Below, in pieces: positions 4,417 through 54,324 of a stretch of 64,000 nt of DNA. Position 1 is the stretch's first letter. Each line of letters opens with the position of its first letter. Under the pieces are notes generated by a model that worked only from the letters and a program-made list of their open reading frames with translations, did no database searches and was not told the origin of the DNA. The DNA is from Chloroflexota bacterium. GTDB taxonomy: Bacteria > Chloroflexota > Anaerolineae > Anaerolineales > Villigracilaceae. The stretch covers positions 1 to 64,000 of the forward strand of contig JACRLC010000067.1 of the NCBI GenBank assembly GCA_016235425.1, in the 5' to 3' direction. A program made the translations under genes and the position numbers.

Positions 4417-5364
4417 TCACACCATTGTAGCAAAATTCACTAAACTGTCCCAAATTTCGGTATTGAGTTTTTCAAATTGAGATTGTGCGAATTCCCAGAA
4501 CAATCCCTGCGCACGGGTGAATGGAAAGTCAATATGGCGCGCCATGTAAATCGTGCGCCGCAGATCAAGTCCGTCTACTTCCACTTTTTTGATTCGCCCC
4601 AAAGCCAGTCCGCGCGCCGCAGCCATTTCAGAGACGAAGGCAATGCCTACGCCGCGTTCCACGGCCATTTCAATCGCTTCTGCGTTGCCAAGTTCGATCA
4701 CAACGTTGAGATTGTCCATCGTAATATTGTGGCGCTTCAAGCCTCCCATTACGGTTTCGCACGTTCCAGACATTTCCTCGCGGGTGACGATGGGCTGGTC
4801 GAGCAGGTCGGCGGGCAGGGCATGTCCGTAATTCGACCAGGGGTGGTTGGAAGGGACGATAAGGATAATCCGATCCTCGAAAAGGGGAACAGGCTCAAGG
4901 TCCCGGTGTTCGAGGCGGCGGCTGGAGATCCCTATCGGCAGGGCGCGGCAAAGAAGCCTGTCCAGCACCGAATCCCGGCTCATGATCTTCACTCGCGGGT
5001 GCACGGCGGGATAATCGCGTTGAAAGTCTGCCAGCAAAATGGGCAGGAGATATTTTCCGGCAGAGGTCGAACAGCCGATCAGAAGTTCTCCGCCGACCTG
5101 GTTGTTCACATCCTGAAGCCCGTCTTCGAGCAGGCGCGCGGCTAGCAAAACCTCACGTACCATCGGAATGATCGTCTGGCCCGCTTCACTTAGCTGCACC
5201 GAGCGTCCGTGGCGGATGAATAATTCCACTTTGTAAGCGCGTTCGAGCGCCTGAATATTCTGGCTGATGGCGGACTGCGACATGTGAAGCCGCCGCGCGG
5301 CCTGGCTGAAATTCTTTTCCTCCGCCGCAACAAGGAACACGCGCAAAGCCGACAACTCGACCAT
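4417..5364 (-). CDS. LysR-family transcriptional regulator
   Basis: A 315-residue LysR-type regulator. The N-terminal winged helix-turn-helix is clear (FSQAARRLHMSQSAISQNIQ), followed by the type 2 periplasmic-binding-like effector domain from about residue 90. The frame is open 20 codons further upstream, but ATG at 5364 has a GGAGAG ribosome site (5369-5374) and starts exactly at the family N-terminus (MVELSALRVFLVAAEE). The target and co-inducer are not evident. The Fe-S gene and the rhodanese gene on the same strand are not divergent partners, so the usual LysR divergent-target rule does not help. Confidence 0.88.
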   Translation of the reverse strand: MVELSALRVFLVAAEEKNFSQAARRLHMSQSAISQNIQALERAYKVELFIRHGRSVQLSEAGQTIIPMVREVLLAARLLEDGLQDVNNQVGGELLIGCSTSAGKYLLPILLADFQRDYPAVHPRVKIMSRDSVLDRLLCRALPIGISSRRLEHRDLEPVPLFEDRIILIVPSNHPWSNYGHALPADLLDQPIVTREEMSGTCETVMGGLKRHNITMDNLNVVIELGNAEAIEMAVERGVGIAFVSEMAAARGLALGRIKKVEVDGLDLRRTIYMARHIDFPFTRAQGLFWEFAQSQFEKLNTEIWDSLVNFATMV

Positions 5365-5368
5365 TTTT

Positions 5369-5374
5369 CTCTCC
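5369..5374 (-). promoter_or_regulatory. Ribosome binding site fixing the LysR start
   Basis: GGAGAG on the minus strand, four bases from the ATG at 5364. No comparable site precedes the longer open frame. Confidence 0.7.
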
Positions 5375-5489
5375 GTGATAAGGAACTCTGATATTTCGCT
5401 GGTATAAGGATAAGGGTTTGTCATGAGCGTGAACAGTGAGAATTGTCAACGCTTGCGTGTGCGGATGTGGGGGAAACACCCCAGAAGCA

Positions 5490-5653: not shown

Positions 5654-7365
5654 CTATTTGGCTGTCGGAAGTTCAGCGGCGACCCAGCCGTTCATGCCGC
5701 CAGCCAGGTTGCGGACGTTGGTGTAGCCCAGGAATTGCAGGTACATCATGGTGATGCCGCCGCGATGACCGGACTGCAGTACACCACAATGGGCGCGGCC
5801 TTGTCAGCAGGCAGGGACGCGAGATTGGCGGGCAGGTCGTTGACGAAGACCAGCGTTGAATCCTCGATGTAGCCATCGGCGGTCTTTTCTTCCTCGGAGC
5901 GCAGGTCGAGCATGAAGGGAACCGTACCGCCGGCGATTTCAGTGTTCAGGTCCACTGGTTTGATGGAGCCAAAACCTTCGGGCAGGGCGCTTAGGTAAGC
6001 ATCCAGCGCGGCCAGACGGGTTGTATCCACCTCGGGAGCAGTGCCAGCGACCGGAGCCGCGGGTTCACCGGTCTCAACGGCGAACTGTGCCTTGATCCAG
6101 CCATTCATGCCGCCAGCCAGATTGACCACATCGGCGTAACCGAGCAAGCGCAAAGAGGCGACGGCAAGAGCGCCGCGGTGACCGGACGCGCAGTAGACTA
6201 CGATCTTCTGATCTTGGGTGGGAAGCTTATCCAGGTTCTTGAGCAGGTCGCGGATTGGGATATTGATCGCGCCGGCGATGTAGCCATTTTCTGCGATCTC
6301 AGAGGGTTCGCGCAAATCCACGATGAAGGGGGGATTCTCGACCAGCAGGCCGTTGAGAGCATCGGACTTCACAGTGTAGAAGCCCTGGTCAGCGGGCAGG
6401 GCAGACACGAACTCATCCCAAACAACGGGCCAGTTGACCCAGCCAACGACGGGCATGTTGGCATTTTTCCACGCATTCAAGCCGCCGGCGAGGTTTGTGA
6501 TGTTGCTATAGCCCAGGAGGCGCAGTCCCATCACTACGACAGAGCCGCGATGACCGGAGACGCAATGCACGACAATCGGCGCGTCCTTGGCGGGGAGGTT
6601 ATCCAGGCTGGCGAAAATCTCCAGCATGGGCACGTTGACCGCGCCTTCGATGTAGCCGTCTTTCGCGAATTCTTCGGCGGTGCGGATGTCAATGACAACA
6701 GGCGGGGTTGAGCCGGTCAGTGCTTCGCCCAGCGCATCGGTCTTGATGGCGTAATAGCCTTCCGGCAGGCCCGCGAAGAAGCTATTGAGCGCATCGAACA
6801 ATGCCTGATCTGCAATGACGGGTGTGCTGATGGCCGCGGCCGCTTCTGGCATGGAGCCGGTGACAATGGCCAGATTGGCTTTCTTCCATCCACTGAATCC
6901 GCCCGCCAGGTTGCGGACGTTGGTGTAACCCAGCAGTTTGAGGGCCGCAAAGACCATGCCAGCGCGATGACCCGACGCGCAGTAGACGACGATCGGTTCG
7001 TCGAGGCCGGGCAGTTTATCCAGGTTGGTGAGGACTTCGCGCACCGGGATATTGACAGCGCCTTCGATGTAACCATCGATTTCCAATTCGGCGGCCTCGC
7101 GAACGTCGAGGATGAAGGTTGCTTTGTCAACAAGCTCTTCGCCCAACACAGCTGGTTTGACTGTGCCGTAGCCTGCATCGGCGGGCAGTTCTGAAACGAG
7201 CGCTGCGAAGAGGGCTTGAATATCCGGCCCGGCCTCGACAACGGGGGCTTCCGTTACGACGGGAGCCTCGGTCACTGCTACGGGTTCGGCGGCGGGCGCG
7301 CAGGCGCTCAGGATCATGCTGAACACGATGAGCAATCCAAACAACATCTGCAATTTCTTCGACAT
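5654..7365 (-). pseudogene. Four-rhodanese-domain lipoprotein, frameshifted in domain 4
   Basis: A secreted lipoprotein (signal peptide ending in the lipobox ILSAC) with four tandem rhodanese domains. Each of the first three has an active-site loop of the form VVYCASGHR, VVHCVSGHR or VVYCASGHR, so a catalytic Cys is present. Rhodaneses move sulfane sulfur to thiols or cyanide. In domain 4 one base is missing next to the active-site codons (about 5773-5778): the frame then reads YCSPVIAAASP and stops at 5746. Restoring one base gives SGHRGGITMMYLQFLGYTN and continues to a stop at 5654, about 570 residues in total. It is either a real truncation or a sequence error. Start is ATG after AAGGAGA; it lies 35 bases downstream of the multiheme cytochrome, so it is probably cotranscribed. 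Confidence 0.85.
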
Positions 7366-7400: not shown

Positions 7401-8954
7401 CTACTGCTGTAACTTGTGGCAGCCAGAACAGTTATCATCCTTGTATTCGAGATGGTCTTCGGGGCTGATGGGGGCCTCGCGTATGCCTTCCGCGTGACAG
7501 GCTGTGCATGAATTCGACGCGTGCTCGACGTGGTCTACGGGCAAGAGCGGCGCGTTGAGGAACTTTTCCACACTGACAAGCGGCGGGAGCGTTTCGACGA
7601 TGACAGAGGCGTTCGCTTCCAACTCATCGGATTTCACTTTCTCCTCGGTGAGGAAGAGAGTCTCATCTCCGCTGTGGCAGGTCTCGCAGGAGGCATTTTG
7701 CGGTGTGTGCTTTTGAATGTTGTGCGGCGTTGCATACAGCCAGGTTGGAAGCGCATTGAAATTGGTCAGCAAATCCCTGCCGTAGAATTCATAACTATCA
7801 GCCGCGATTGGCACGTGACGCACGGGCACATACTTGTATGGCCTATCTTCTGATGGGTCGGGATTCAATCCGATGAAGAAAGTCTGGTACGTCGCTTCGG
7901 TCTCAAAGAATGGCCTGCCGCTGGTCTCGCTGATAGCTGTGTGACAACCATCGCAGCTTGTGTACGTGATCGAGTGACAGACCTGACAGGACAGCGTATC
8001 GCCGTGTGCCTGGTGCATCGGGTTGTCGTCGCCGCCCGGGGCCGCGGTCTCGTGGCAGTCAGTGCATTTGGGCATCTCGCTTCCCGAATACCGATGGTCA
8101 GGAGCAGGCCTGCCCTGAGTTTGATCGAAGGGTGTCGGGTCCGAAGATGAACCGTGCAATTCTGTCCCCGCGTGGCATTTGATGCAGTTCATGCGCGCCT
8201 CGCGGAAGTGCACGTCGCCCGCGAGGCCTTCATTCTTGCCGAGGAACTCGTTGCCCACGCGGCTTCCGTGACAGGCCGTACACGAGCGCGTCATCGGCGG
8301 AGTCGTTTCGAAAACGTGCCCCGTAAATAAACCGCCGCCCACATTCTTTGGCTGGCTCACGTGGCACTCGCCGCACGTCGTGTGGCAGGTGGCGCAGTGA
8401 TTTCCAAACATCTCTTCGAGTTGTGCGTGATTTTCAGGCACACTGCGCGCCTCGAGCGCGGTCCAATATCCCTGCTGGGTGGAGTGAAGCGCGAACGGGT
8501 ATGTGGTCGTCTGTTCCTCGTGGCATTCGCCGCAATACTTTTCAGGCTGCGCGCTCGGGCTTGCAATCAGGCCCTCGTGCGCGGTCTCTTTATCCGGCGA
8601 TTGCACGCCGCCGTGACAATCAACGCAGGCGATCTCACCGTGATCGGTGGGCAGGAACTTCTCGCCATCCACCAAAACTTTTTGCCAGGGCTCCAACGGA
8701 GCCACATCGCCCCCTCAACCAACGCCTTTGGATTCGCTTTCCGCCGCCACCTCAGGTTTGGCCGTATCAATCAAGCGTTGCTTGTCTGTGTGGCAAATCA
8801 AGCACTCGTCATTGACGGGTGCGGCAGTTGCCTCTGCGGCTTCGATGGCCGGCGTGTCGGTCTTTGCCGGCGCATCGGCGGGGGACTTGGATGCGCATGC
8901 GGATAACGCGAACAGGATGAGGACTAGCAAACTTGCGGTTCTTGTTTTTGACAA
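7401..8954 (-). CDS. 13-heme cytochrome c lipoprotein with in-frame TGA (putative selenocysteine)
   Basis: A multiheme c-type cytochrome read from TTG at 8954 (ribosome site GAGAGG). It has a lipoprotein signal (ALSAC) and 13 CxxCH heme motifs: one (CLICH) before and twelve after an in-frame TGA at 8715-8717, codon 80, context KGVG-TGA-GGDV. The frame is otherwise open to 7401. Without readthrough the twelve-heme part has only an internal GTG and no export signal, so it could not be matured. Seventeen bases after the TGA a perfect 6-bp hairpin (GGCTCC, loop GTT, GGAGCC) has G first in its loop, as in bacterial SECIS elements, and tRNA-Sec is encoded at 54231. Selenocysteine insertion is inferred; a nonsense mutation is the alternative. 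The segment [10 protein letters not shown] comes from a dispersed repeat. The ccm genes nearby would attach the hemes. Confidence 0.75.
8112..8130. repeat. CTGAG-TTGTCGAAG-type dispersed repeat inside the cytochrome gene
   Basis: A variant (CTGAGTTTGATCGAAGGG) of the short CACTGAGCCTGTCGAAGTG palindrome also found at 15828, 20399, 36437 and 63016. Here it is translated in frame as TPFDQTQG between heme motifs. Confidence 0.55.
8684..8717 (-). promoter_or_regulatory. Candidate bacterial SECIS element
   Basis: On the minus strand TGA (8715-8717) is followed by 17 bases and then a 3-nt loop GTT capped by the 6-bp stem GGCTCC/GGAGCC. This matches the general bacterial SECIS description: a small apical loop with G in its first two positions, 16-37 nt from the UGA. 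It has not been tested by folding or SelB binding. Confidence 0.6.
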
Positions 8955-8966
8955 AGCGGCCTCTCA

Positions 8967-9411: not shown

Positions 9412-11017
9412 TGTCGTTTACGTAATCGATTGACAATGAGCAGGCAGGGGGAAGGTAGGGTGAAATATTTTCCCACGTAAGTTCGAGGCTGTTGAATTGC
9501 GCGCCTGAGATCGCATCTGCCAGACAGCCGGGCCCGGCGTTGTAATTGACCAGCGTAAACTTCCACAGGTTTTCGTACGATACGCTTTGCCCCGGCGCGC
9601 CGCCTGTGAAGTTACGGACCACCTGTCCCGTTTGCTGACAGTTGGCGATCATTGTGTTGGCGAATACGTTTATCGAGAAATCCGCCTGCGTCAGGTCCAG
9701 TCCCAGCGGACAATCCTGACAGATCGCGTTGACGCTTGCAACGAGTGACTGCCGCAGAAGAAGCTGTTCATCCTGTTTGAGGTGCAGGTACCCTTTGCCG
9801 CATCTTTCCGCCTCGAGTACGAGCGGGCAGAACTGATTATGAAAGGATGGATTCCAAATCAACGTCGTATCGGCGCCATTCTCGGTCAGTTGGCCCAGTC
9901 CCACGTCGCTTGCGGCCTGGTAAATGCCCGGCCAAAACTGGCTTTCGCGTGCGAACAAATTCTTGAGCAAACGGGCCGGGACGCCGGTCTCTTCTGCGGT
10001 GGTCAGGATCAACGTGTCGAATCGGTTTTGCCATTCAATCACCGCGTCGCGTGCTTTTTCCAACCCGCATTGATTCACGCCGCCGCCGGGGACCAGCCCG
10101 CCATCGGGACAGGCAGAAGCATCCACCACACCCTGCAGGATCAAATTCGCGGCGAGATATGTGTAGGGAATGTCACTGCTGAGTTCTTCGCTTGCCGTGG
10201 GAGTGGTCAGCCAATCAGGCGGGCCGCCAACGGGCGGGAAGGATCCCCATGTGTCGGCGCAGGTGGCTACAGCCGGGCCCTGCCATTGCGAAGAGAGCAC
10301 ATCCACGTACCAGTAGAGTTGGTCCGGGTCGCCCTCGTCGGCTTTCACAACGCGGACCTGGGCGGTGTAAACGAGACTGCTATCCCCGTAGGATGAGTAG
10401 GCCCAGAATTCAACGGTCACGCCTCCTTCGTCTGTTTCCGGTAGTTGGAATTTACAAGTTTCCGAATCCGCGCACACGAAGGGCAGGCCGTCGTATGTTC
10501 CCTCCACGCGGATGATGGTTTCGTTTGGCAGGGGTTCGTGCCCGGTGATGACGAGCGTCGGCATTGTTTCGCAAATATTCGTGGACGTGCTGATCACCGG
10601 TTCGCAATCTTCAATCGAGACGTAGACCGTGGCGGGCGCGAGTTGCATGGCGATCTCTTTTTCCGCGGGCCGGCTGTCAACGTCATAAACGTAGTAACCA
10701 TCGCAGACGTTTTTGTTTCCCACCCCCGTGCAAGGCTTTTGTGAGACCCATTTATCGTAGATTGTTTCTCCGCAATCGCGATAGACTTCTTCCGGGGTTG
10801 GAATACCCTCATGGTCAACCACCAGGGTGCAGACGATTTCTTGTCCCTTCCACGCGGCCATCCACCATTCGAAGGCTGTATATTCAACGGTGATGGTGGT
10901 GAATCGATCGGGGCCGGGAGGCGGATTGGGAGCGGCGGCAGGCTTGAAGTCCCGCGTGAATGCGGTGCCCGTGAGGACCGAAGTTAAAAAAAGGAGTCCA
11001 ATCCAGCGAGTATTCAT
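9401..11017 (-). CDS. Secreted protein with SLT-like lytic transglycosylase domain
   Basis: A 538-residue exported protein with an N-terminal hydrophobic signal (LLFLTSVLTGTAF). The N-terminal 230 residues are rich in Cys and beta-type segments without a recognised family. The C-terminal half (about residues 320-520) looks like a transglycosylase SLT domain: RESQFWPGIYQ carries the expected catalytic Glu, followed by GLGQLTENGAD and the conserved NYNAGPG. SLT enzymes cleave the MurNAc-GlcNAc bond of peptidoglycan. The many Cys residues suggest disulfides outside the membrane. The start at 11017 gives the signal peptide but has only a weak ribosome site. Confidence 0.68.
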   Translation of the reverse strand: MNTRWIGLLFLTSVLTGTAFTRDFKPAAAPNPPPGPDRFTTITVEYTAFEWWMAAWKGQEIVCTLVVDHEGIPTPEEVYRDCGETIYDKWVSQKPCTGVGNKNVCDGYYVYDVDSRPAEKEIAMQLAPATVYVSIEDCEPVISTSTNICETMPTLVITGHEPLPNETIIRVEGTYDGLPFVCADSETCKFQLPETDEGGVTVEFWAYSSYGDSSLVYTAQVRVVKADEGDPDQLYWYVDVLSSQWQGPAVATCADTWGSFPPVGGPPDWLTTPTASEELSSDIPYTYLAANLILQGVVDASACPDGGLVPGGGVNQCGLEKARDAVIEWQNRFDTLILTTAEETGVPARLLKNLFARESQFWPGIYQAASDVGLGQLTENGADTTLIWNPSFHNQFCPLVLEAERCGKGYLHLKQDEQLLLRQSLVASVNAICQDCPLGLDLTQADFSINVFANTMIANCQQTGQVVRNFTGGAPGQSVSYENLWKFTLVNYNAGPGCLADAISGAQFNSLELTWENISPYLPPACSLSIDYVNDISQ

Positions 11018-11303: not shown

Positions 11304-12002
11304 TTACATTGAGACTTTAAGTCTGAGCTGTTCGACCTTATCCTGCAAGTCCCCCAGGCGGATGCGGTGCCAGAACAAATCAACGAAGATGACCGTGAAG
11401 GTGAAGAGCGCGAAGAAGAATGCGACTTTCATATCGCTGGTCATGTCGAAACCGCCCTGCGCCGCGGCGGACTGGTTGCCGATGACGACGGGGTGAATGG
11501 TGCGGAAGAGGCGGATGACCATGAAGGTGATCGGCGCGCTGATGCCACCCAGCAGTGTGTAGACTGCGCCGAAGCGGGCGCGGCGCTCGGGGTCTTCGAT
11601 GCTCTGGCGGAGCATGAAGTAGGCGATGTAGATCAGCTCGGTGATGGCGGCGGTGGTGAGACGCGGGTCCCATGTCCACCAGGTATTCCAGGCAGGGCGC
11701 GCCCAAATGGAGCCGAGCACGATGGTGATGAAGAAGAAGACGAGGCTTACTTCCACCGCGGCCACTTCCACCCGGTCCCATTTGAGGTCTTTGGTGACGA
11801 GGTAGACGATGCCGGTGATGGCCGCGAACAGGAAGCCCAGCAGTCCCACCCACGCCGTGCCGACGTGGAAGTAAAACACGCGCTGGACCTGTCCCATCAC
11901 GGCTTCAGTGGGCGCGAAGAAGAGGGCAAGATAAGCGGAAATGGCAAGGACAATAATGGAAACAACGTCGAGGATTGTGAGGGCGAGAGGTTTGGATTGC
12001 AT
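11304..12002 (-). CDS. ccmC: Heme exporter / cytochrome c biogenesis protein CcmC
   Basis: A 232-residue polytopic membrane protein with about six helices and the tryptophan-rich WWD motif (NTWWTWDPRLTTA) that holds heme in CcmC. Flanking His residues (FHVG in the second helix region, TIHPV near residue 170) suit axial heme ligands. CcmC loads heme onto CcmE. It sits between ccmB and ccmD on the same strand. Confidence 0.92.
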   Translation of the reverse strand: MQSKPLALTILDVVSIIVLAISAYLALFFAPTEAVMGQVQRVFYFHVGTAWVGLLGFLFAAITGIVYLVTKDLKWDRVEVAAVEVSLVFFFITIVLGSIWARPAWNTWWTWDPRLTTAAITELIYIAYFMLRQSIEDPERRARFGAVYTLLGGISAPITFMVIRLFRTIHPVVIGNQSAAAQGGFDMTSDMKVAFFFALFTFTVIFVDLFWHRIRLGDLQDKVEQLRLKVSM

Positions 12003-12016
12003 TTATGCTCCTATAA

Positions 12017-12049
12017 GATTTACGATTTGCGATTGCCGATTTACGATTT
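12017..12049. repeat. Heptamer simple repeat between ccmB and ccmC
   Basis: GATTTAC/GATTTGC/GATTGCC heptamers in tandem, one of about ten such 7-bp-period tracts in the window. It fills most of the 45-bp ccmB-ccmC gap. Confidence 0.7.
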
Positions 12050-12779
12050 ATTCTTCAACCACAAAATCAAACACCATGAACGCGATGGCGATGAAGATGA
12101 CATCGTAGACGATCAGCAGATTCAGTGGTGTGAGGATCTCGGAAAACTCCGCGCCGGAGAGAATGCCGCCGCTGGCCTTGACCGAGGCCAACAGCACGGG
12201 AATGATGATCGGGAAGAGCAGGATCGGCAGAAGGACGTCGCGCGTGCGTGTCTGCACGGTCATGGTGGAGATCAATGTGCCGACGGATGAATAGCCAATC
12301 GAACCCAGCAGGATCACGCCGAGCAAGCCGGGCTGGAACAAATTGACTCCGTATAACACGCCGTACATCGGCAGGACAATCGCTTCCACGATCAGCATAA
12401 AGGCCAGGTTGCTGATGACCTTGCCGAAGTAAATGGCGGCGCGGTCCACCGGCGCGAGCAGGAGACCATCCATACAGCCGCGGTCTTTTTCGATTGCCAT
12501 CGAGCGGTTGAGGCCGAGTGTGCCTGCAAAGGCGAAGGTGGCCCACAGCACACCGGCTGTCACTTTGCGGCGAATATCGGGTTCGAGTTCGAGGGCGAAG
12601 TTGAAAATGAGGATGACCAGCATCGAAAAAACCAGCATGGCCGAGAGCAGTTCACGCGAACGCAATTCCGCGGCCAGGTCCTTTTGCACGACGGCGAACA
12701 TGGCTTTGAAGAAGCTGGGAGTGATTGGCGTGGTGCGTGTTGATGCGGTGCGTGTTGCTTGTTCTGTTGTTGTGGCCAT
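12048..12779 (-). CDS. ccmB: Heme exporter permease CcmB
   Basis: A 243-residue membrane protein with six hydrophobic segments, matching CcmB, the permease partner of the CcmA ATPase. Conserved stretches include LWATFAFAGTLGLNRS and the late DVLLPILLFPIIIPVLLASVKAS. The start could be TTG 12785, overlapping the ccmA stop by four bases, or ATG 12779, immediately after it; ATG was preferred. Translational coupling with ccmA is likely. Confidence 0.9.
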   Translation of the reverse strand: MATTTEQATRTASTRTTPITPSFFKAMFAVVQKDLAAELRSRELLSAMLVFSMLVILIFNFALELEPDIRRKVTAGVLWATFAFAGTLGLNRSMAIEKDRGCMDGLLLAPVDRAAIYFGKVISNLAFMLIVEAIVLPMYGVLYGVNLFQPGLLGVILLGSIGYSSVGTLISTMTVQTRTRDVLLPILLFPIIIPVLLASVKASGGILSGAEFSEILTPLNLLIVYDVIFIAIAFMVFDFVVEE

Positions 12780-12781
12780 GG

Positions 12782-13480
12782 TCAATCTGCCAGCGCTTTC
12801 TTGTAGAAATCGAGTAGGTTTGTTTTCTTCAAGCCGCTTCTCAAAGAGGAGGCCGCGATGACGCCGCGTGACAGGATGTCAAAACGCGTTGCCAAATCCT
12901 CGGCGCGGGCCAGGTCGTGGGAGGTCATCACCACCGTGCGTCCTTCAGCCGCGACGGAACGGAGCACGTCATCGAGCATGGACGAGGCATCCTGGTCGAG
13001 GCCGGTATAGGGTTCATCGAATAGCATTACGTCGGGGTCGTGGATAACGGCGCGCCCGATGGCGAGACGTTGCTGCATCCCGCGCGAAAAGGTGCGGACG
13101 AGGTCCCTGCGGCGGTTTTCCAGCCCCACCATTTCCAAAACTTCGGTAATTCGTAATTCGTAATTGGGGACGTTGTACATGCGCGCGTAGAAGCGCAGGT
13201 TTTCCTCGGCTGTGAGTTCACCATATAGCAGGGGCAAATGGGAGACTACGCCCAGCCGGGCGCGGACCTGTGCGGCTTGGTGGGGGAGTTGATACCCGGC
13301 GATGTTGACCGCTCCCATCGAAGGCCGCGAGAGCGAAGAAAGGATTCGCAGGAAGGTTGTCTTTCCCGCGCCGTTCGGGCCGAGGAGCGCGACGAATTCA
13401 CCGGGCTGGACTTCAAAGTCCACGCCGCGCAGGACGGCTTTCAGGCCAAAGCGTTTGACGAGTTTTTTGACGGTAATCAT
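12782..13480 (-). CDS. ccmA: Heme exporter ATP-binding protein CcmA
   Basis: A 232-residue ABC ATPase: Walker A GPNGAGKTT, signature FSRGMQQRLAIGRA, Walker B VMLFDEPYTGLDQ and the His switch in VMTSHD. With CcmB it powers release of holo-CcmE. The stretch NYELRITEVLE derives from a heptamer simple repeat (13145-13168) inserted in frame. A GTCATTGCGAG element lies just upstream and no good ribosome site is visible before ATG 13480. Confidence 0.92.
   Translation of the reverse strand: MITVKKLVKRFGLKAVLRGVDFEVQPGEFVALLGPNGAGKTTFLRILSSLSRPSMGAVNIAGYQLPHQAAQVRARLGVVSHLPLLYGELTAEENLRFYARMYNVPNYELRITEVLEMVGLENRRRDLVRTFSRGMQQRLAIGRAVIHDPDVMLFDEPYTGLDQDASSMLDDVLRSVAAEGRTVVMTSHDLARAEDLATRFDILSRGVIAASSLRSGLKKTNLLDFYKKALAD
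13145..13168. repeat. Heptamer repeat inside ccmA
   Basis: Tandem TAATTCG heptamers, read on the minus strand as NYELRIT. The repeat is in frame and lies between the Q-loop region and the signature motif of the ATPase. Confidence 0.7.
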
Positions 13481-13491
13481 GGTCGTTGTAT

Positions 13492-13669
13492 GTCATTGCC
13501 CCGCCAACATACGGCGGGATTCCGAGGAGGGTGTTCTTCCCGACAAAGCAATCCCTGATTAAACGGAGGGAACTGTTCGACAAAATTTATCCGTTTAGCG
13601 GGAGATTGCTCACCTGCACTGCACCGAACGCAGTGCGGTGCAAGTGTCGCAGCTTGCGCTCGCAATGAC
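13492..13669. repeat. GTCATTGCGAG palindromic element, copy 3
   Basis: The longest copy (~178 bp). It has GTCATTGC and GCAATGAC ends, internal AAAGCAATCCC / GGAGATTGCT, and an extra internal palindrome around GCACTGCACC. It occupies the whole gap between the cytochrome lipoprotein gene and ccmA. Confidence 0.8.
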
Positions 13670-13672
13670 ATG

Positions 13673-15535
13673 TTAGCTTTCTTCCTTCAACTTCGCCTTC
13701 AATTCATCGCGGCGATTGTGGTAGGCTTCATCGTTCAATTTTCCGGCGCGGTGCAGGTCGTCGAGCGCGATGATGGCATCGAGAACCGATTCGGAATCTT
13801 CGAACTCATCCTCTTCCTCGTCCTTCTCTTCGATGCGGCTGCGGTCGCGCAGGTACATCCACACACCTGCGATGATGAGTACGAGACCGAGCGCGCCCAC
13901 GCCGATCAACAAGGTTTGATTCTGCGTCACGTCGGCTGTGTCGCTTGTGGCTTCGGGTTTGCCGGAAAGCGTGAACGTGATCGTATCGCCGGTATTCAAT
14001 GAGCCGCCATCGTAGACCTGGAAGTTCGTGCCTTGCAGGGCTTGAATGCCGCCGTCGGTGAGATTATCGCCTTTCGCCGTCACGCCTTCGGGCAGAAAGA
14101 TTACGGTGCTCGTAACTGGCAGGCTCATGAGCTGCTTGAATTCAATCTTGCCATCCTTCGGGTAGGACGCGAATGCCACCAAACCGTAAGGCACTTCGCT
14201 GGGTGCAATGGCAAAGCCGCTGTCTGTTGGTGTGAACGACGCGCTGTCCTGTGTGGCTTCGTAGCCGAGTCCCTCCGCGCCTTCGGGGAATGTGATGAAC
14301 GGAATTTCCTGCGCGTCGCCCATGTTCACCAAAACTGTTTTGTCGGTGGTGTTCATGATCGAATACACCGCAAAGGCCTGGATGCTGTCGGCGTTTGCGT
14401 AATCGAAGAAAATTTGCAGGGTATCAACGGTCAAGGTTGAATAATCGTCGGTAGTCGCATGGACCACAATATCCGGAAGGGTCACTTCCACAGCGCCCGT
14501 TTCGACAAGCGCAAAGTCGGATTGATAAGTGATGCCGTCCACTGTGACTTCGGCGACAAAGATGCGCCTCTCGGGAATTTCAACATTTTCGAATTTGAAA
14601 ACACCGTCGGCTTCTGCAACGCCATCAAGCGTGAGCACCTCCTGTGGGCCTGCGTTTGGGTCAGCGCCGTGTTCGAAGCCATGCAAAGTGACTTTTAGAT
14701 CAGACGGCAAAGCCGCGCCCGTTTGGTTATCGATGACGCCGCTGACAGGTCCGACTCCGGCGATGGCAGCCGCTTCAGGCGTGACTTCGGCTTGGGCTGT
14801 GCCTTCGAGATGCGTCGCCTCCGCTGACGGAGTCCCTGCCTCAGGGCTGACGGGAGTCCCGGTAACGGTGGCAGGTTCGGCGGCGAGTTGAGGCGGGGCG
14901 AAGGTCAGAGTCCGCAGATAGGCCGCAACTGCGTAGGCGTCCTCGTCTGAAAGATCGCTTCCGAAAGGCGGGATGTCGCCGCCGCCCGTTTTGATCAGGT
15001 TGACGAGGTCGGTTTCAGACAGCGCGGCCATCTTTTCCGGGTTTGTGAATTTATCGGCGCAATTGGCGCAGTTGGTTTCAAAAATTGTTTTGCCCTTTTC
15101 GATCATTTCGGGCGTGGTGTGAAGCGTGAGCGCGTAAGAGATCACATCCCAGCGCTCTTGGTCGCTAAGCGCTTTAGCAAATGGAGGCATGTACCTTTCC
15201 AGATTTCCCTGTGTAACTATGGTGAACCATTGGGAAGCTGATTTCGGATGAGCGATTTCTGGTAATGCAAAAGCAGGCACGCTGACGCCTTCAAGCTGAA
15301 TACCTTGAGGTCCATCGCCCATGCCTGTTTCACCATGGCATGGTGCACAGTGTTGAGCAAAGAGCACTGCACCGTTTTCAACATTAGGCGCGCTTGAAGG
15401 ATATAGTTGGAGCGTAGGTATTGGAGCCGGAGGAGTGTAATCTGGCGGCGGCGTGACATCGGCCGCGAGGGTGAAGTTGCAGGCGGATAATGCGAGAGTT
15501 GTAATAATAAGCAAAAGAGACAGGCGAAATTTCAT
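13673..15535 (-). CDS. Membrane-anchored cytochrome c lipoprotein, second heme site degenerate
   Basis: A 620-residue lipoprotein (lipobox ALSAC). The first cytochrome c domain (about residues 50-140) has CAPCH and a distal Met in YMPPF. The second (about 145-215) keeps the fold (LSDEDAYAVAAYLRTL) but reads CANCA, with the heme His replaced by Ala, and has IPPF where Met would be. A carboxypeptidase-regulatory-like beta domain follows near 265-340, then a long beta-rich region, a C-terminal membrane helix (near 525-550) and an acidic tail ending in a helical AGKLNDEAYHNRRDELKAKL motif. It sits inside the ccm cluster, so it is probably a respiratory or maturation-linked electron carrier. The functional role is inferred. 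Confidence 0.78.
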   Translation of the reverse strand: MKFRLSLLLIITTLALSACNFTLAADVTPPPDYTPPAPIPTLQLYPSSAPNVENGAVLFAQHCAPCHGETGMGDGPQGIQLEGVSVPAFALPEIAHPKSASQWFTIVTQGNLERYMPPFAKALSDQERWDVISYALTLHTTPEMIEKGKTIFETNCANCADKFTNPEKMAALSETDLVNLIKTGGGDIPPFGSDLSDEDAYAVAAYLRTLTFAPPQLAAEPATVTGTPVSPEAGTPSAEATHLEGTAQAEVTPEAAAIAGVGPVSGVIDNQTGAALPSDLKVTLHGFEHGADPNAGPQEVLTLDGVAEADGVFKFENVEIPERRIFVAEVTVDGITYQSDFALVETGAVEVTLPDIVVHATTDDYSTLTVDTLQIFFDYANADSIQAFAVYSIMNTTDKTVLVNMGDAQEIPFITFPEGAEGLGYEATQDSASFTPTDSGFAIAPSEVPYGLVAFASYPKDGKIEFKQLMSLPVTSTVIFLPEGVTAKGDNLTDGGIQALQGTNFQVYDGGSLNTGDTITFTLSGKPEATSDTADVTQNQTLLIGVGALGLVLIIAGVWMYLRDRSRIEEKDEEEDEFEDSESVLDAIIALDDLHRAGKLNDEAYHNRRDELKAKLKEES

Positions 15536-15552
15536 GAGTTCCTCAATGGAAA

Positions 15553-15585
15553 AGTAATTGGTAATTACCAGTTACCAATCACCAT
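15553..15585. repeat. Heptamer-like repeat with inverted half
   Basis: GTAATTGGTAATTACC followed by its near-inverse AGTTACCAATCACC, filling the gap between the zinc-ribbon gene and the cytochrome lipoprotein gene. Confidence 0.6.
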
Positions 15586-16140
15586 TTACGTCAATGACTT
15601 CCCACACGCTGGGCAAAATCTATCGGATACAAATATGGGTTTGCCGCATTTCGGGCAGAAGCCCGCGGACTTGTCCTTGTGCGCTCTGCGGCGCGCGGCA
15701 AGCATGGATTCGATATCGTCGTCGGTGAGTTGCGGAGTCTCTGCGGATGCATCCGCGCGGCGGGCGGCGACGGCTTTTTCGATGCGGTCTTCCTCCGACC
15801 CCCCTCGCCCTGCGGGAGAGGCGTTGTCCTGAGCTTGTCGAAGGAGGCTGGGGGTGAGGGCAAGGGACAGTTCATCCAACTTCTTCAAAATCTCCGCGCC
15901 TTTTTGCAGGAGCAGGGCGCGTTGAGCCGGGTAATCCTCAGAGGGAATCTTGCCGAGGTTGAAATCGAAATCGAGTTCCTGCAGGGAGTTGATGACGCGG
16001 TCGCGTTCGGCCATGAGCGATGAGACTTCGTGCGATTCGTTGGCCGTTGCGCGGCGTCCGCGTGACATGAACGGGGCATATAAATACATGCCGACCAAAA
16101 TCAGAACAGCCAGGATGAGAAAGATGGCGCCTAGTTCCAT
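15586..16140 (-). CDS. CcmI-like membrane protein with C-terminal zinc ribbon
   Basis: A 184-residue protein: N-terminal membrane helix (IFLILAVLILVGMYLYAPFM), a coiled segment with the ERDRVINSLQELDFDFNLGKI pattern found in CcmI/CycH N-termini, and a C-terminal zinc ribbon with two CxxC pairs (FCPKCGKPIF, FCPACGKSL). It lies 9 bases after ccmG. In frame between them is a stretch (QAQDNASPAGRGG) encoded by two dispersed repeats (15799-15860), a likely insertion. It is probably an accessory of apocytochrome handling; this is inferred from context. Confidence 0.65.
   Translation of the reverse strand: MELGAIFLILAVLILVGMYLYAPFMSRGRRATANESHEVSSLMAERDRVINSLQELDFDFNLGKIPSEDYPAQRALLLQKGAEILKKLDELSLALTPSLLRQAQDNASPAGRGGSEEDRIEKAVAARRADASAETPQLTDDDIESMLAARRRAHKDKSAGFCPKCGKPIFVSDRFCPACGKSLT
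15799..15860. repeat. CCCTCGCCC...GGGTGAGGG repeat with embedded CTGAGCTTGTCGAAG
   Basis: A composite repeat inside the CcmI-like gene: the CTCCC/GGGAG-GGGTGAGGG family (other copies at 19525, 24195, 51521) with the TTGTCGAAG palindrome in its middle. It is read in frame without stops. Confidence 0.65.
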
Positions 16141-16149
16141 GATGTGTCC

Positions 16150-16746
16150 TTATTTGAGTAAGCCATCAATGATGGATTTGATCTCATCCACCGATGAAAA
16201 CGGCCCGACCTTCACATATTGAAGGACGCCGTTTTGATCAATGAAATACGTCTCCGGCACGCCTTTGATGCGGAACATCTGGGAAATTTTTGTGCCCATG
16301 TCCGGGCCGTTGGCAAAGGTGATGCCAAACTTTTTGAGGTACACGCGCGCTTCGGGCTCGGTGTCCACGTAGTCCGCGCCGAGGAACACAACCTTCCCAT
16401 CCGGTTCGTAGAATTGCCAGGCTTCCTGCAATTCGGCGGCTTCCTGTTCGCATGGCTTGCACCACGATGCCCAGAAATTCAGCACCACCACCTTGCCGCG
16501 AAAATCGGAAAGTTTTACTTCGCTCCTGCCCTCGTATTCGTAGCCGCTGAAAAGCGGAAGTGTGAAATCGGGGATTTTGTCGCCGGGCTGTACCGTCCCT
16601 TGTTGTGCGCGGCGCAAGCCTACAAAAACAATCGCAAGCAGAGCAATGAGCAATCCCCAAACAATGATTTGCACCCATGCGGGCACGCCGCGTTTCCCCG
16701 CCGAAGTAGCGCGGGATTCTGGCGCTGTGTTGGTAGTTTCGGTCAT
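16150..16746 (-). CDS. ccmG: Thiol:disulfide interchange protein CcmG/ResA-like
   Basis: A 198-residue membrane-anchored thioredoxin-fold protein: one N-terminal helix (VQIIVWGLLIALLAIVFVGL), then an AhpC/TSA-Redoxin domain with active site WASWCKPCEQE and the late GVPETYFID cis-Pro loop. It reduces the CxxCH thiols of apocytochromes before heme ligation. It lies next to ccmH and the zinc-ribbon gene, with a 117-bp repeat-bearing gap upstream. Confidence 0.9.
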   Translation of the reverse strand: MTETTNTAPESRATSAGKRGVPAWVQIIVWGLLIALLAIVFVGLRRAQQGTVQPGDKIPDFTLPLFSGYEYEGRSEVKLSDFRGKVVVLNFWASWCKPCEQEAAELQEAWQFYEPDGKVVFLGADYVDTEPEARVYLKKFGITFANGPDMGTKISQMFRIKGVPETYFIDQNGVLQYVKVGPFSSVDEIKSIIDGLLK

Positions 16747-16760
16747 TATTTTCTCCCAAA

Positions 16761-16858
16761 AAGACCTGACAGGTTTCCGCGGGGCCTTTGACGGTCAGGC
16801 ACGTTCGTTTTCAGTGAGTCCTCATAATCGGACTTCTTTGAAAACCTGTCAGGTCTGT
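16761..16858. repeat. Inverted ACCTGACAGGT repeat pair
   Basis: AGACCTGACAGGTTT near 16760 and its inverse AAACCTGTCAGGTCT near 16844 bracket the ccmH-ccmG gap. The same ACCTGACAGGT core recurs in a tight hairpin at 19570-19600. Confidence 0.6.
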
Positions 16859-16863
16859 GTGAT

Positions 16864-17382
16864 TCATTTTCGTTTCTTCAATTCTTCTTCGAGACGCGCC
16901 ACGTAATCGTCCTGCGGGGCGACGGGCTTCGCTTCTGACTCACCCGAGCCTGCTGAGGCAACAACGGGCTTTGTCCATGCCCGGAGAGCGCGGAAGAGGA
17001 TGTAGGCTCCGACCAGGATAATCGCGGGGGGAAGCAGGTACACGAGCCAGTTCAGTCCCGTGCGCGGAGGCTCGGCGAGCACGCGCGCGCCGTAGTTATC
17101 CACAAAATATTGCTTGATCTCCGCCTCAGTCCTGCCCTCGGATAACTGGGTGCGGATCAACTCGCGCCACTGGCGGCACGCTTCGGTGGGACACACGTCC
17201 AGCGGCGTGTTTTCGCAAACTGGACAATACAACTGCTTGGCAATCGCATTGACTTCATCGTCGGTGGGTGTGGGACCTTGCGCGAAGGCGGGTTGATAAA
17301 CCAAACTTGCAAAAACAAACGCGAAGGCGAGCAATAAGTAATTAGTAATTTGTAATGATTTGCCGGTTGAAGATGCTTTCAT
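16864..17382 (-). CDS. ccmH: Cytochrome c-type biogenesis protein CcmH
   Basis: A 172-residue protein with a signal-anchor, a CcmH/NrfF domain and a following membrane helix (WLVYLLPPAIILVGAYILF). The thioredox motif is CPVC (YCPVCENTPLDVC) in place of the proteobacterial LRCxxCQ, followed by the family pattern IRTQLSEGRTEAEIKQYFVDNYGARVL. CcmH reduces or presents apocytochrome thiols to CcmF. Heptamer repeats (17336-17358) lie in the signal region. Confidence 0.9.
   Translation of the reverse strand: MKASSTGKSLQITNYLLLAFAFVFASLVYQPAFAQGPTPTDDEVNAIAKQLYCPVCENTPLDVCPTEACRQWRELIRTQLSEGRTEAEIKQYFVDNYGARVLAEPPRTGLNWLVYLLPPAIILVGAYILFRALRAWTKPVVASAGSGESEAKPVAPQDDYVARLEEELKKRK
17336..17358. repeat. 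Heptamer repeat in the 5' part of ccmH
   Basis: AAGTAATTAGTAATTTGTAATG, read in frame within the CcmH signal peptide region (LQITNYLL). Confidence 0.6.
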
Positions 17383-17411
17383 CTTATCTACCTGTGTACT
17401 TGTTTATTTTC

Positions 17412-19511
17412 TCAATCCGCCGCGCTCATTTGACGGGCGCGCTTGTTCACGCGCACAGGTTCCTGCTCCGGGTCTTTATCCGGCCAGGCGGCGATGATCA
17501 CGCCGAACAGGAACAGCAGGCTTCCGATCCACAGCCAGTTGACCAGCGGGTTGACGTAAATCTTGAACGTCGCGCCATTGGCGGAGATGGGCTGCCAGTC
17601 CACGAGAAGGACGTAAAGGTCATCTCGCAGTGTAGAGCGGTTCCCCGGAATGGTCATGTTCTGCTGGGAGTCGTAGTAATAATCCTTGCGCGGATATAAC
17701 TCACCCAGGTAAACTCCACCTTTGAAGATGCTGACTGCCGCGCGTGTATAGTTGACTTGGGGATTACCCCTAACAGGAACATCCCAGTTTGCCAGTTCCT
17801 TGTATTCAACCGTGTAACCGGATATATCGAGAGATTCTCCAACCGCAACCGTTCCCTGGGTTTCGGTCTGGAAGATTTCGATGCCAAGAATACCAATCGC
17901 CATCAGCATCATGCTGATGTGGATGATGTATCCGCCGTAGCGCCTGCGGCTGCGGCCAATGAGGCGCGCCAGCGCGGTGAAGAAGTTTTCATCCTGCGCT
18001 CTCTGGCGGGCACGCGTCGCGCGCCAGAACTCCTGCATAGTCACGAAGAGCACCAGCGCAATGAGGAAGAAAGCTATCAGGGCGATGAGATTCTTTGTGT
18101 AAACGGCGAACAGGACAACGGTCAGGAAGAGAGCCGCAAGCGCGGACTTCCATATCGCGCGTCCGAGAGTGTTGAGCGTCGAGTGTCCCCAGGCTGAGAG
18201 CGGTGCGATGCCCATCAGGAACATCAGCGCGGCGAAGAGCGGCGCGGTGGCGCGTTCATAGAATGGCGGGCCGACGGTCACTTTCGCACCGGTGGCGAGT
18301 TCGGAGATGAGCGGGAAGATCACACCCCAGAAGCACACAACGAGCACACTCATGAAGAGCAGGTTATTCAAAAGAAACAACGCTTCGCGCGAGAGCATGG
18401 ACTTCATCTCGGTCTCGCCGCGTAGTTCGGGCCAGCGCCAGATCAGCAGTGAAATGGACGTGATGAAGGTGATGCCGATGAACGCGAAGAACAACGGACC
18501 GATCGCACTTTGTGCGAAGGCGTGAACCGAGGAGAGCACGCCGGAACGCGTGAGGAACGTCCCAAAGATGACGAGCGCGTAGGTTAGGATGACAAGCACC
18601 ATGTTCCAGTGTTTGAGCAGGCCGCGCTTTTCCTGGATCATCACGGAGTGCAGGAAAGCTGTGCCGGTGAGCCAGGGCATGAAGGCCGCGATCTCAACCG
18701 GGTCCCAGCCCCAGTAGCCGCCCCAGCCGAGCACGTCATAAGCCCAGCGTCCGCCGAGCACGAGGCCGAACGATAGGAACAGCCACGCCCACAGACTCCA
18801 GCGGCGTGTCAGGCGGATCCAGCGGTCATCGGTGCGGCCAGTGACGAGCGCCGCGATGGCGAAGGCGTACGGGATGACAAATGATACAAAGCCAAGATAA
18901 AGCATGGGCGGGTGAATGACCATGCCGGGGTGGCGCAGGAGCGGATTCAAGCCTTGTCCATCGTCAGGGATGAAAGTAGTCGCGCCAATGACCGGGGTAA
19001 ACACACTAGTGAGAAGTTGCCCATCTATCCTGGTGATAAGTTGCCCATTGATATCTTGCCAGTAGCGCGCGAACGGATTCTCGTAGAAGACCACCATGCC
19101 GAGGAAGAATGCCAGCGTGATGGCTGTAACCACGATCACCCACGGCAGGAACTCGCGGTCGCGGTCCCATTTGCGGAGGGTGACCGCGCTCGCGAACGCC
19201 GACAGCAGCCACGACCAAAAGACGAGCGAGCCAGCCTGTCCGCCCCACCAGGCAGTAACTTTGAGGTAGGTGGGCATACTGCGGCTGGTCACTTCATAGA
19301 CGAAGGCTACTTCATAATGGTTGTTGACCAGCAGGTAGATCAGCGTGGCCGCGGATAATGAAATGAGGGGGAAGGTCAATAACATGGCGCGCCGCGCGCT
19401 CTCAATGACCGCATCGGACTTGTTCCTTACGCCAAAAATCGCCGCACCCACACTATAGAGCGCGACGATGAAACTTACCATTAAGACACCGTATCCAAAT
19501 TCAGCGAGCAT
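17412..19511 (-). CDS. ccmF: Cytochrome c heme lyase subunit CcmF
   Basis: A 699-residue polytopic protein with about 14-15 membrane helices. The WWD domain is clear (GGYWGWDPVEIAAFMPW) and conserved His positions flank it (HPGMVIHPPMLYLG). The C-terminal extracytoplasmic part is typical. CcmF with CcmH ligates heme from CcmE to CxxCH sites. It lies 29 bases upstream of ccmH, on the same transcript. Confidence 0.95.
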   Translation of the reverse strand: MLAEFGYGVLMVSFIVALYSVGAAIFGVRNKSDAVIESARRAMLLTFPLISLSAATLIYLLVNNHYEVAFVYEVTSRSMPTYLKVTAWWGGQAGSLVFWSWLLSAFASAVTLRKWDRDREFLPWVIVVTAITLAFFLGMVVFYENPFARYWQDINGQLITRIDGQLLTSVFTPVIGATTFIPDDGQGLNPLLRHPGMVIHPPMLYLGFVSFVIPYAFAIAALVTGRTDDRWIRLTRRWSLWAWLFLSFGLVLGGRWAYDVLGWGGYWGWDPVEIAAFMPWLTGTAFLHSVMIQEKRGLLKHWNMVLVILTYALVIFGTFLTRSGVLSSVHAFAQSAIGPLFFAFIGITFITSISLLIWRWPELRGETEMKSMLSREALFLLNNLLFMSVLVVCFWGVIFPLISELATGAKVTVGPPFYERATAPLFAALMFLMGIAPLSAWGHSTLNTLGRAIWKSALAALFLTVVLFAVYTKNLIALIAFFLIALVLFVTMQEFWRATRARQRAQDENFFTALARLIGRSRRRYGGYIIHISMMLMAIGILGIEIFQTETQGTVAVGESLDISGYTVEYKELANWDVPVRGNPQVNYTRAAVSIFKGGVYLGELYPRKDYYYDSQQNMTIPGNRSTLRDDLYVLLVDWQPISANGATFKIYVNPLVNWLWIGSLLFLFGVIIAAWPDKDPEQEPVRVNKRARQMSAAD

Positions 19512-19524
19512 AAGATTTCCTTAA

Positions 19525-19563
19525 CTCCCCTCTCCCGCAGGGAGAGGGGCGGGGGGTGAGGGG
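19525..19563. repeat. CTCCCC/GGGGTGAGGGG repeat
   Basis: Intergenic copy of the CTCTCCC-GGGAGAG-GGGTGAGGGG family between ccmE and ccmF, forming the hairpin CCCTCTCCC-GCA-GGGAGAGGG. Confidence 0.65.
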
Positions 19564-19569
19564 AAATAA

Positions 19570-19601
19570 AACCTGACAGGTTATAAAACCCTGTCAGGTT
19601 C
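19570..19601. repeat. ACCTGACAGGT hairpin
   Basis: AACCTGACAGGTT and its near repeat/inverse ACCCTGTCAGGTT form a small hairpin just past the ccmE stop. It may act as a transcript-stability element in the ccmE-ccmF gap. Confidence 0.5.
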
Positions 19602-19604
19602 TGT

Positions 19605-54230: not shown

Positions 54231-54324
54231 CGGGAGTGGATGGGAGTCGAACCCACCGCGGCCCGCAACGCGGCCCGCCACAGGTTTTGAAGACCAGGAG
54301 ACCCACCGGGACCTAACCACTCCC
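54231..54324 (-). tRNA. selC: tRNA-Sec (anticodon UCA)
   Basis: A 94-nt tRNA on the minus strand with an 8-bp acceptor stem (GGGAGTGG / CCACTCCC), a long variable arm (GGCGGGCCGC / GCGGGCCGC region), the T-loop GGTTCGACTCC and the anticodon loop CTTCAAA, giving UCA (54288-54290), which decodes UGA. Long arm, 8-bp acceptor and UCA identify tRNA-Sec rather than tRNA-Ser. CCA is not encoded. It implies a selenocysteine pathway in this genome; selA, selB and selD are not in the window. Confidence 0.95.

What the first reader, a model, noticed from the sequence alone, without database searches (positions are those of the whole stretch)
7401..8954. Putative selenocysteine-containing multiheme cytochrome
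One in-frame TGA (codon 80) interrupts an otherwise intact lipoprotein cytochrome with 13 CxxCH motifs. The export signal is before the TGA and twelve hemes after it, so termination would leave a useless protein. Directly after the TGA a perfect 6-bp hairpin presents a G-starting loop 17 nt away, as expected for a bacterial SECIS, and the same window encodes tRNA-Sec. The surrounding residues GVG-U-GGDV are not a heme motif, so the selenol would have another role, such as a metal or redox site.
Basis: partly seen in the sequence, partly recalled or inferred. Interest (0 to 1): 0.86.

Follow-up and report, generated by a model that had tools for sequence, protein, structure and literature searches.

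The report
Selenocysteine multiheme cytochrome with rhodanese partner
Many bacteria of the phylum Chloroflexota carry a secreted electron-transfer protein with about eleven hemes and, by all comparative signs, one selenium amino acid encoded by what looks like a stop codon; its gene sits beside one for a sulfur-carrier protein, and it appears to be a new family of selenium protein.

Summary
In detail: TGA is codon 80 of a TTG-start, 517-residue, 13-CxxCH lipoprotein cytochrome (window 8954-7401, minus). Selenocysteine is strongly supported. Of 143 distinct homologues that reach the site, 133 have TGA there. The hairpin after it meets the published bacterial SECIS model, covaries, and locks synonymous codons. 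selA, selB, selD and tRNA-Sec are present. The 10 homologues without TGA have Trp, Leu, Phe, Val or His, never Cys. TGA changes 8 times on the tree; over independent comparisons Tyr163 changes with it in 5.7 of 8 on average, and the neighbouring rhodanese gene in 5 of 6, never the opposite way. With full flanks, 81 of 82 TGA genes have the rhodanese, against 1 of 6 without TGA. One homologue is fused to a rhodanese domain. I propose that Sec80, Tyr163 and perhaps His186 form an active site on an OTR-like cytochrome (Z 9.5) acting on sulfane sulfur carried by the rhodanese. Active site and substrate are inferred. It does not match the model of ExtKL, the known Sec cytochrome of Geobacter, but keeps similar gene company.

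The parts
7401..8954 (-). Sec-containing multiheme c-type cytochrome, lipoprotein-type signal, 13 CxxCH, 517 residues, TTG start, TAG stop
   Evidence: Pfam Cytochrome_C7
8715..8717 (-). in-frame TGA, codon 80 (Sec80), motif [14 protein letters not shown]
   Evidence: TGA in 133 of 143 homologues
8689..8703 (-). SECIS hairpin GGCTCC-GTT-GGAGCC, 17 nt between TGA and loop
   Evidence: model constraints
8466..8468 (-). codon of Tyr163, kept in 131 of 133 TGA homologues and changed in 8 of 10 without TGA
8397..8399 (-). codon of His186, kept in 131 of 133 TGA homologues; in the 10 without TGA, 5 keep it, 4 have another residue, 1 a gap
8960..8965 (-). GAGAGG, likely ribosome-binding site of the cytochrome
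   Evidence: read directly; not tested
5746..7365 (-). multi-domain rhodanese with lipoprotein-type signal, starts 35 bp after the cytochrome stop; fourth domain broken by a 1-nt frameshift (remnant reads on to about 5654)
   Evidence: Pfam Rhodanese E 2.1e-67, four stretches
4417..5424 (-). LysR-family regulator next to the pair
54232..54324 (-). tRNA-Sec
   Evidence: Rfam 70 bits, gathering score 47

Best explanation
A bacterial selenoprotein. Ribosomes read UGA 80 as selenocysteine with SelB, tRNA-Sec and the SECIS hairpin just downstream (supported by comparison, not measured; my probability 0.97). The product is an exported lipoprotein cytochrome with 11 conserved hemes, 13 in this genome, whose predicted core resembles octaheme tetrathionate reductase. 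Sec80 sits in a glycine-rich loop outside any heme motif and works together with Tyr163, and less certainly His186, as an active site (inferred from joint change; 0.7). Its partner is the multi-domain rhodanese encoded beside it (0.85). Most likely the rhodanese carries sulfane sulfur as a persulfide, the selenol takes it as a selenenyl sulfide, and the hemes, fed from the quinone pool through other cytochromes or an NrfC/NrfD-type module, reduce it to sulfide (inferred; 0.4). The direction could be the reverse.
For: TGA at the site in 47 of 51 site-covering homologues from 249 genomes, in 75 of 80 loci of named genomes (1 of the 5 others is cut off before the site), and in 133 of 143 distinct rows after merging all sets. 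Locked synonymous codons after the TGA in the 75: CCG 75 of 75 Pro, TTG 75 of 75 Leu, GAG 75 of 75 Glu, GCT 73 of 73 Ala. Of 153 conserved columns tested, the three with the strongest codon bias are codons +5, +7 and +6 after the TGA. On 58 of 117 distinct sites, covariation 0.251 against 0.078 in shuffles (0 of 500 as high) and at most 0.034 in slid controls. All six pairs form in 128 of 133 TGA genes and in 2 of 10 without TGA. selB, selA, selD, tRNA-Sec, each over its cut-off. Rhodanese within 3 kb on the same strand: 81 of 82 against 1 of 6, Fisher 9e-7. A rhodanese-cytochrome fusion with a Fer4 protein and NrfD next to it. Tyr163: 131 of 133 against 2 of 10, Fisher 5.5e-10. OTR fold match, Z 9.5 over 266 residues at 4.5 A.
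Against: No protein or selenium measurement. No Cys homologue is in the sample, the usual support for a redox Sec, and 3 of 10 replacements are Trp. Two TGA genes from outside the class lack Tyr163, and one of them also lacks His186 and the rhodanese (L210, L211). Fisher tests ignore relatedness; with only 6 to 8 independent comparisons the tree-based tests are weak (median p 0.03 for Tyr163, range 0.03-0.06; 0.06 for rhodanese; 0.25 for His186). The tree includes the two tested columns, 2 of 354. L125 lost TGA but keeps a full stem. L143 lost TGA but keeps a rhodanese. The rhodanese gene of this genome has a frameshift in one of four domains. Foldseek itself found nothing at E <= 0.001, and Sec80 lies outside the residues aligned to OTR. 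Electron direction was not tested.
Confidence: 0.87

Rival explanations
1. The UGA encodes Sec, but the enzyme reduces selenite, tellurite or related oxyanions, as proposed for the ext cluster of Geobacter, and the rhodanese handles the product.
For: The Geobacter ext cluster joins a Sec cytochrome (ExtKL), a rhodanese-like protein (ExtH) and several cytochromes; loss of ExtI impairs selenite and tellurite reduction (PMC5877670, passages). Of 44 members, 26 match the ExtM profile and 7 the ExtN profile at E <= 0.001.
Against: No ExtKL match. The ExtM match of P0001 is 16.8 bits against a cut-off of 800; other multiheme models match as many members (27 of 44 for decahem_SO), so heme motifs alone may explain it. 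I did not search the loci for porin genes.
Confidence: 0.2
2. Sec80 is an axial ligand or redox tuner of one heme; the protein only transfers electrons.
For: Sec sits in a heme-rich protein; cysteine ligands of hemes are known in other families (recalled). A count of conserved non-motif His gave 10 for 11 hemes in the 44-row alignment.
Against: In the larger alignment 11 non-motif His are conserved for the 11 core hemes, so no ligand is clearly missing; the count depends on the alignment (His314 was 84%). In rows without TGA the core motif His mostly stay (L191 has lost one, L059 is truncated) while Tyr163 and the rhodanese go, which fits loss of catalysis better.
Confidence: 0.15
3. UGA is read as Trp by near-cognate readthrough, not as Sec.
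For: 3 of 10 homologues without TGA have TGG (Trp) at the site.
Against: A hairpin fitting the SECIS model with locked synonymous codons and covariation is not needed for that; the other 7 have Leu, Phe, Val or His as aligned; TGA terminates 5 of 19 window frames checked. TGA to TGG is a single transition.
Confidence: 0.02
4. The UGA is a real stop: either a broken gene or a reinitiation site, for example GTG 8705.
For: A GTG lies 9 nt after the TGA, behind a purine-rich stretch.
Against: The stop and both flanks are conserved in 133 of 143 homologues; the downstream product would lack the export signal that c-type cytochromes need (established knowledge); the codon is GTC, CTG or CCG in several homologues (L039, L040, L042, L053).
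Confidence: 0.01

Closest known systems
ExtKL, Sec-containing multiheme cytochrome of Geobacter (NCBIfam NF040886), in the extHIJKLMNOPQS cluster
   Same: Multiheme cytochrome with one predicted Sec, for which the catalogue gives no Sec motif; a rhodanese-like gene (extH) and other multiheme cytochromes nearby (PMC5877670 passages; PMC13188914 passages).
   Different: ExtKL is predicted as 5-heme; this one has 11 conserved hemes. No NF040886 match in P0001 (E <= 1), in 44 members (E <= 0.001) or in the whole genome.
Octaheme tetrathionate reductase (S. oneidensis, PDB 1sp3; NCBIfam TIGR04315, listed as a selenoprotein family in PMC13188914)
   Same: Predicted fold aligns with Z 9.5, 266 residues, 4.5 A.
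   Different: 11 core hemes instead of 8; TIGR04315 is not among the 13 families matched by any of 44 members at E <= 0.001; the Sec loop lies outside the aligned part. That 1sp3 belongs to TIGR04315 is recalled.
NrfA, cytochrome c nitrite reductase
   Same: NrfA has active-site Tyr218 and His277; Tyr218Phe nearly abolishes nitrite reduction (PMC8840924 passages). Here Tyr163 is replaced in 8 of 10 genes without TGA, 6 times by Phe.
   Different: No CxxCK in the window protein or in any of 133 TGA rows, whereas NrfA has a CxxCK active-site heme; homology not shown; the Tyr correspondence is an analogy only.
Sud rhodanese with polysulfide reductase Psr, Wolinella succinogenes
   Same: Sud is a periplasmic sulfurtransferase that binds polysulfide sulfur (PMC3397948 passage; the delivery to Psr is recalled). 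NrfD occurs in the L085 cluster.
   Different: Psr uses molybdenum (recalled); here a Sec cytochrome would take its place.

Membership tests
Bacterial selenoprotein | In-frame UGA conserved across homologues | tested here: met
   133 of 143 distinct rows; 47 of 51 and 75 of 80 before merging
Bacterial selenoprotein | bSECIS: loop 3-9 nt, stem 4-16 bp, G in the first two loop positions, 16-37 nt spacing, MFE <= -7.5 (PMC13188914 section 5) | tested here: met
   Loop GTT, 6 bp, 17 nt; -13.1 kcal/mol for the 45 nt after the TGA in the window; covariation
Bacterial selenoprotein | selA, selB, selD and tRNA-Sec in the genome | tested here: met
   each over its cut-off
Bacterial selenoprotein | Selenium found in the protein | not testable with these tools
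   needs labelling or mass spectrometry
ExtKL (NF040886) | Match to the curated family model | tested here: not met
   no hit for P0001 at E <= 1, 0 of 44 members at E <= 0.001, 0 in the genome
Octaheme tetrathionate reductase (TIGR04315) | Match to the curated family model | tested here: not met
   no hit for P0001 at E <= 1; not among families matched by any of 44 members at E <= 0.001
Octaheme tetrathionate reductase (TIGR04315) | Overall fold | tested here: inconclusive
   VIA Z 9.5 to 1sp3, but no Foldseek match at E <= 0.001
Octaheme tetrathionate reductase (TIGR04315) | Tetrathionate reduction | not testable with these tools
   needs enzyme assay
Rhodanese (partner, PF00581) | Rhodanese domains with CxSGHR-type active-site loop | tested here: met
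   E 2.1e-67, four stretches; three loops read; the fourth is frameshifted
Polysulfide reductase (Psr/Phs) | Molybdopterin catalytic subunit | not tested
   16 neighbouring or window proteins were scanned with Pfam and none showed it, but the loci were not searched for it

The most novel reading that the evidence does not exclude
A molybdenum-free sulfane-sulfur reductase (or oxidase): a selenol active site with a catalytic Tyr, built onto an 11-heme wire and fed by a dedicated exported rhodanese, so that Chloroflexota respire or detoxify protein-bound sulfane sulfur through a selenenyl-sulfide intermediate.
Probability: 0.35. Interest if true: 0.88.

Novelty: new variant of a known kind. Interest (0 to 1): 0.77.

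Why it matters
It adds a large selenoprotein family in a phylum known mostly from metagenomes, and gene callers that stop at TGA will cut the gene into two pieces that cannot work alone. The joint change of Sec, Tyr163 and the rhodanese gives a concrete, testable active site and partner for a multiheme cytochrome of unknown function. The absence of any Cys version among 143 rows suggests chemistry that needs selenium. Records of two named strains (Thermanaerothrix daxensis GNS-1, Bellilinea caldifistulae GOMI-1) carry it, so the prediction can be tested directly. It also suggests that rhodanese plus Sec cytochrome is a recurring module, seen here and in the Geobacter ext cluster, whose Sec cytochrome is not recognisably of the same family.

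Tried and rejected
Foldseek against PDB gave nothing at E <= 0.001. Sequence search of PDB with the profile gave partial matches, the best 28pb at 1e-6 over about 100 residues, which look like shared heme motifs; 1sp3 was not among the 25 listed. Rfam gave no match at the site beyond two chance-level ones. MFE alone is a weak test: mean z against synonymous shuffles was only -0.74; stem length (7.4 against 4.6) and codon lock are the useful measures. Counting heme ligands does not show an open heme: 11 conserved non-motif His for 11 core hemes in the large alignment, 10 in the small one. Sec in the rhodanese was looked for in the loci: the only in-frame TGA in a matched rhodanese domain (L143) replaces what looks like its conserved Trp, not the active-site Cys. 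Presence of tRNA-Sec does not discriminate: 213 of 249 class genomes exceed the cut-off, and so do 5 of 14 controls. Among 12 genomes given to a selA search (8 with TGA genes but weak tRNA-Sec hits, 4 without TGA), 10 exceed the cut-off, G104 has a fragment and G108 (no TGA at the site) has none.

Rows dropped before the final count: L171 and L060 (contig ends before the site) and L212 (distant, no site); 146 rows became 143. The second allowed structure job and the viral fold library were not used.

Literature: the listings showed no report of a Sec cytochrome in Chloroflexota that I could recognise; the library lacks most subscription journals. NCBIfam release 20 has no model over its cut-off for P0001.

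Papers: PMC13188914 section 5 and passages; PMC5877670, PMC8840924, PMC3397948, PMC3971608, PMC9312934 passages only; all others search listings only.

Full report
WHAT IS THERE. The frame 8954-7401 on the minus strand begins with TTG behind GAGAGG, carries a lipoprotein-type signal (judged by eye), and has exactly one internal stop, TGA at codon 80 (8717-8715), before TAG at codon 518. It encodes 13 CxxCH, one before the TGA. Pfam sees only generic multiheme cytochrome models, and no NCBIfam model reaches its cut-off. None of 2000 base shuffles of the downstream 437 codons stayed open.

HOMOLOGUES. P0001 found matches in 78 of 249 genomes of the class at E <= 0.001. Fifty-two were clear homologues (E <= 2.3e-48); one is truncated before the site. 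Of the other 51, 47 have TGA at the same place in the motif GxGU(G/A)...W, one has TGG, one TTG, and two have a diverged site. Of these, 75 have TGA at the site, 4 do not, and 1 is cut off. They include Thermanaerothrix daxensis GNS-1 (L142) and Bellilinea caldifistulae GOMI-1 (L157). A phylum draw of 301 genomes had hits at E <= 1e-20 in 12, three of them outside the class, one of these without TGA and only partial. A further, overlapping class draw of 396 genomes had hits at E <= 1e-60 in 75. After merging and removing duplicates, 143 rows reach the site and 133 have TGA. Rows from the genome draws give 63 of 69 and those from the pattern-based scan 70 of 74 (a duplicate counts in one set only), so the share is not an artefact of the scan. 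No row has Cys. Phyla other than Chloroflexota were not searched beyond those best 80.

THE HAIRPIN. Downstream of the TGA lies a stem of six pairs closed by a loop that is GTT in 109 of 117 distinct sites. It meets every point of the published bacterial SECIS model (section 5 of PMC13188914). On 58 of the 117 sites (54 distinct windows) the covariation score exceeds all 500 shuffles and all slid controls; pairs with a change on both sides number 3 against 1.6, reached by 6 of 500 shuffles. RNAalifold finds the same stem by itself. Columns 16 and 28 swap CG for GC while the protein swaps Pro-Ala for Ala-Pro around the loop, so protein and RNA change together. Of 153 conserved protein columns, the three with the most extreme synonymous codon bias are codons +5, +7 and +6 after the TGA, and codon +8 is sixth. 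In the second set CCG, TTG and GAG are 75 of 75 each. All six pairs form in 128 of 133 TGA genes and in 2 of 10 genes without TGA. MFE alone is not striking (mean z -0.74 against synonymous shuffles).

THE MACHINERY. The genome has selB, selA, selD, itself with an in-frame TGA, and tRNA-Sec in the window. Of 12 genomes given to a selA search because their tRNA-Sec hit was weak (8) or because they lack TGA at the site (4), 10 have selA over the cut-off. tRNA-Sec matches are nearly universal in the class (213 of 249 over the cut-off, but also 5 of 14 controls), so they do not discriminate. TGA is a normal terminator in the window (5 of 19 frames).

THE PARTNER. Directly downstream lies a multi-domain rhodanese with a lipoprotein-type signal. 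Among loci with at least 2.9 kb on both sides, 81 of 82 TGA genes have a rhodanese match on the same strand within 3 kb, and 1 of 6 genes without TGA (Fisher 9e-7; the first, smaller count with 3 kb flanks was 77 of 77 against 1 of 5). The one TGA exception is L210, a long-branch copy outside the class. In L032/L085 (one genome) a rhodanese domain is fused in front of the cytochrome, followed by a Fer4 protein and NrfD. Another locus adds a cytochrome b561-like protein and further multiheme genes (L048). G533 carries both kinds on one contig: a TGA copy with rhodanese and Tyr163, and a copy with Phe at the site and neither.

WHAT CHANGES WITH SEC. On a tree of 143 rows TGA changes 8 times; in the earlier tree of 124 rows 7 changes were forced by well-supported branches. 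The changes are scattered and TGA is in the great majority, so I read them as losses. Outside the site, 78 columns are at least 95% conserved in TGA genes; only two are replaced in 4 or more of the 10 others: Tyr163 (131 of 133 against 2 of 10) and His186 (131 of 133 against 5 of 10; four replacements and one gap). Over 200 random sets of independent comparisons, Tyr163 goes with TGA in 5.7, against in 0.0 and unchanged in 2.3 of 8 (median p 0.03, range 0.03-0.06); the rhodanese in 5, 0 and 1 of 6 (p 0.06); His186 in 3.5, 0.2 and 4.3 of 8 (median p 0.25). The tree was built with columns 163 and 186 included, 2 of 354. G062 (TGG, 93% identical to a TGA gene) still has the hairpin, Tyr163 and His186 but no rhodanese neighbour. 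Results that do not fit: L210 and L211 have TGA without Tyr163; L143 has no TGA but a rhodanese; L125 has no TGA but a full stem. The pattern as a whole is what one expects if Sec, Tyr163 and the rhodanese serve one reaction and the remaining protein can live on as a plain electron carrier; the core heme motifs stay in 8 of the 10, with one lost in L191 and one not covered in L059.

FOLD. The model (mean pLDDT 81, pTM 0.76) matches octaheme tetrathionate reductase 1sp3 with Z 9.5 over 266 residues at 4.5 A, and HAO and octaheme nitrite reductases at Z 3.4 to 3.9. Foldseek alone found nothing at E <= 0.001. The heme-ligand count leaves no heme clearly open.

MECHANISM. Shown by comparison: UGA conservation, SECIS, partner gene, joint change. 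Inferred: Sec insertion in this organism, the active site, and the substrate. The best guess is transfer of sulfane sulfur from the rhodanese persulfide to the selenol and its reduction by heme electrons. It works like the Sud-Psr pair in outline (Sud passage; the rest recalled), and the Tyr to Phe change recalls NrfA Tyr218Phe (passage).

KNOWN KIND. Sec multiheme cytochromes are known (ExtKL and the TIGR04315 family in the catalogue of PMC13188914). This family matches neither model. Geobacter ExtKL has a rhodanese-like neighbour too, which makes a recurrent functional module plausible although the cytochromes are not recognisably the same family. I rate it a new variant of a known kind.

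Noticed in passing
window 5654-7365 (-): The rhodanese lipoprotein has a 1-nt frameshift in the active-site loop of its fourth domain; the first three domains read through. Sequencing error or recent damage cannot be told apart.
   Followed up: partly
L191 (G533): Two copies of the cytochrome on one contig, one with TGA, Tyr163 and rhodanese, one with Phe at the site and neither.
   Followed up: yes
L143, rhodanese domain at 9576-9837: A TGA stands where the domain's conserved Trp is expected, in the one full-flank locus that lost the cytochrome TGA (to TGG) but keeps a rhodanese; perhaps a decaying gene.
   Followed up: partly
L044, L075, L087, L089: Genes that look like heavy-metal P-type ATPases (Pfam-checked in L075 and L089, by eye in the others) lie near the cytochrome; LysR-like regulators recur too (Pfam-checked only in the window).
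   Followed up: partly
G000:C20:23311-24243: selD of this genome has an in-frame TGA, so the organism probably makes at least one further selenoprotein.
   Followed up: no
window 55626 onward (+): A DnaB-like helicase frame appears to hold an intein (judged by eye from the translation, motif recalled).
   Followed up: no
window 11304-20117 (-): A set that looks like cytochrome c maturation genes lies upstream of the Sec cytochrome (names judged from the translations, mostly not searched).
   Followed up: no
L041, L051: Two TGA genes keep only 2 of the 6 standard stem pairs; their predicted hairpins are shifted, so the SECIS may move while TGA stays.
   Followed up: no
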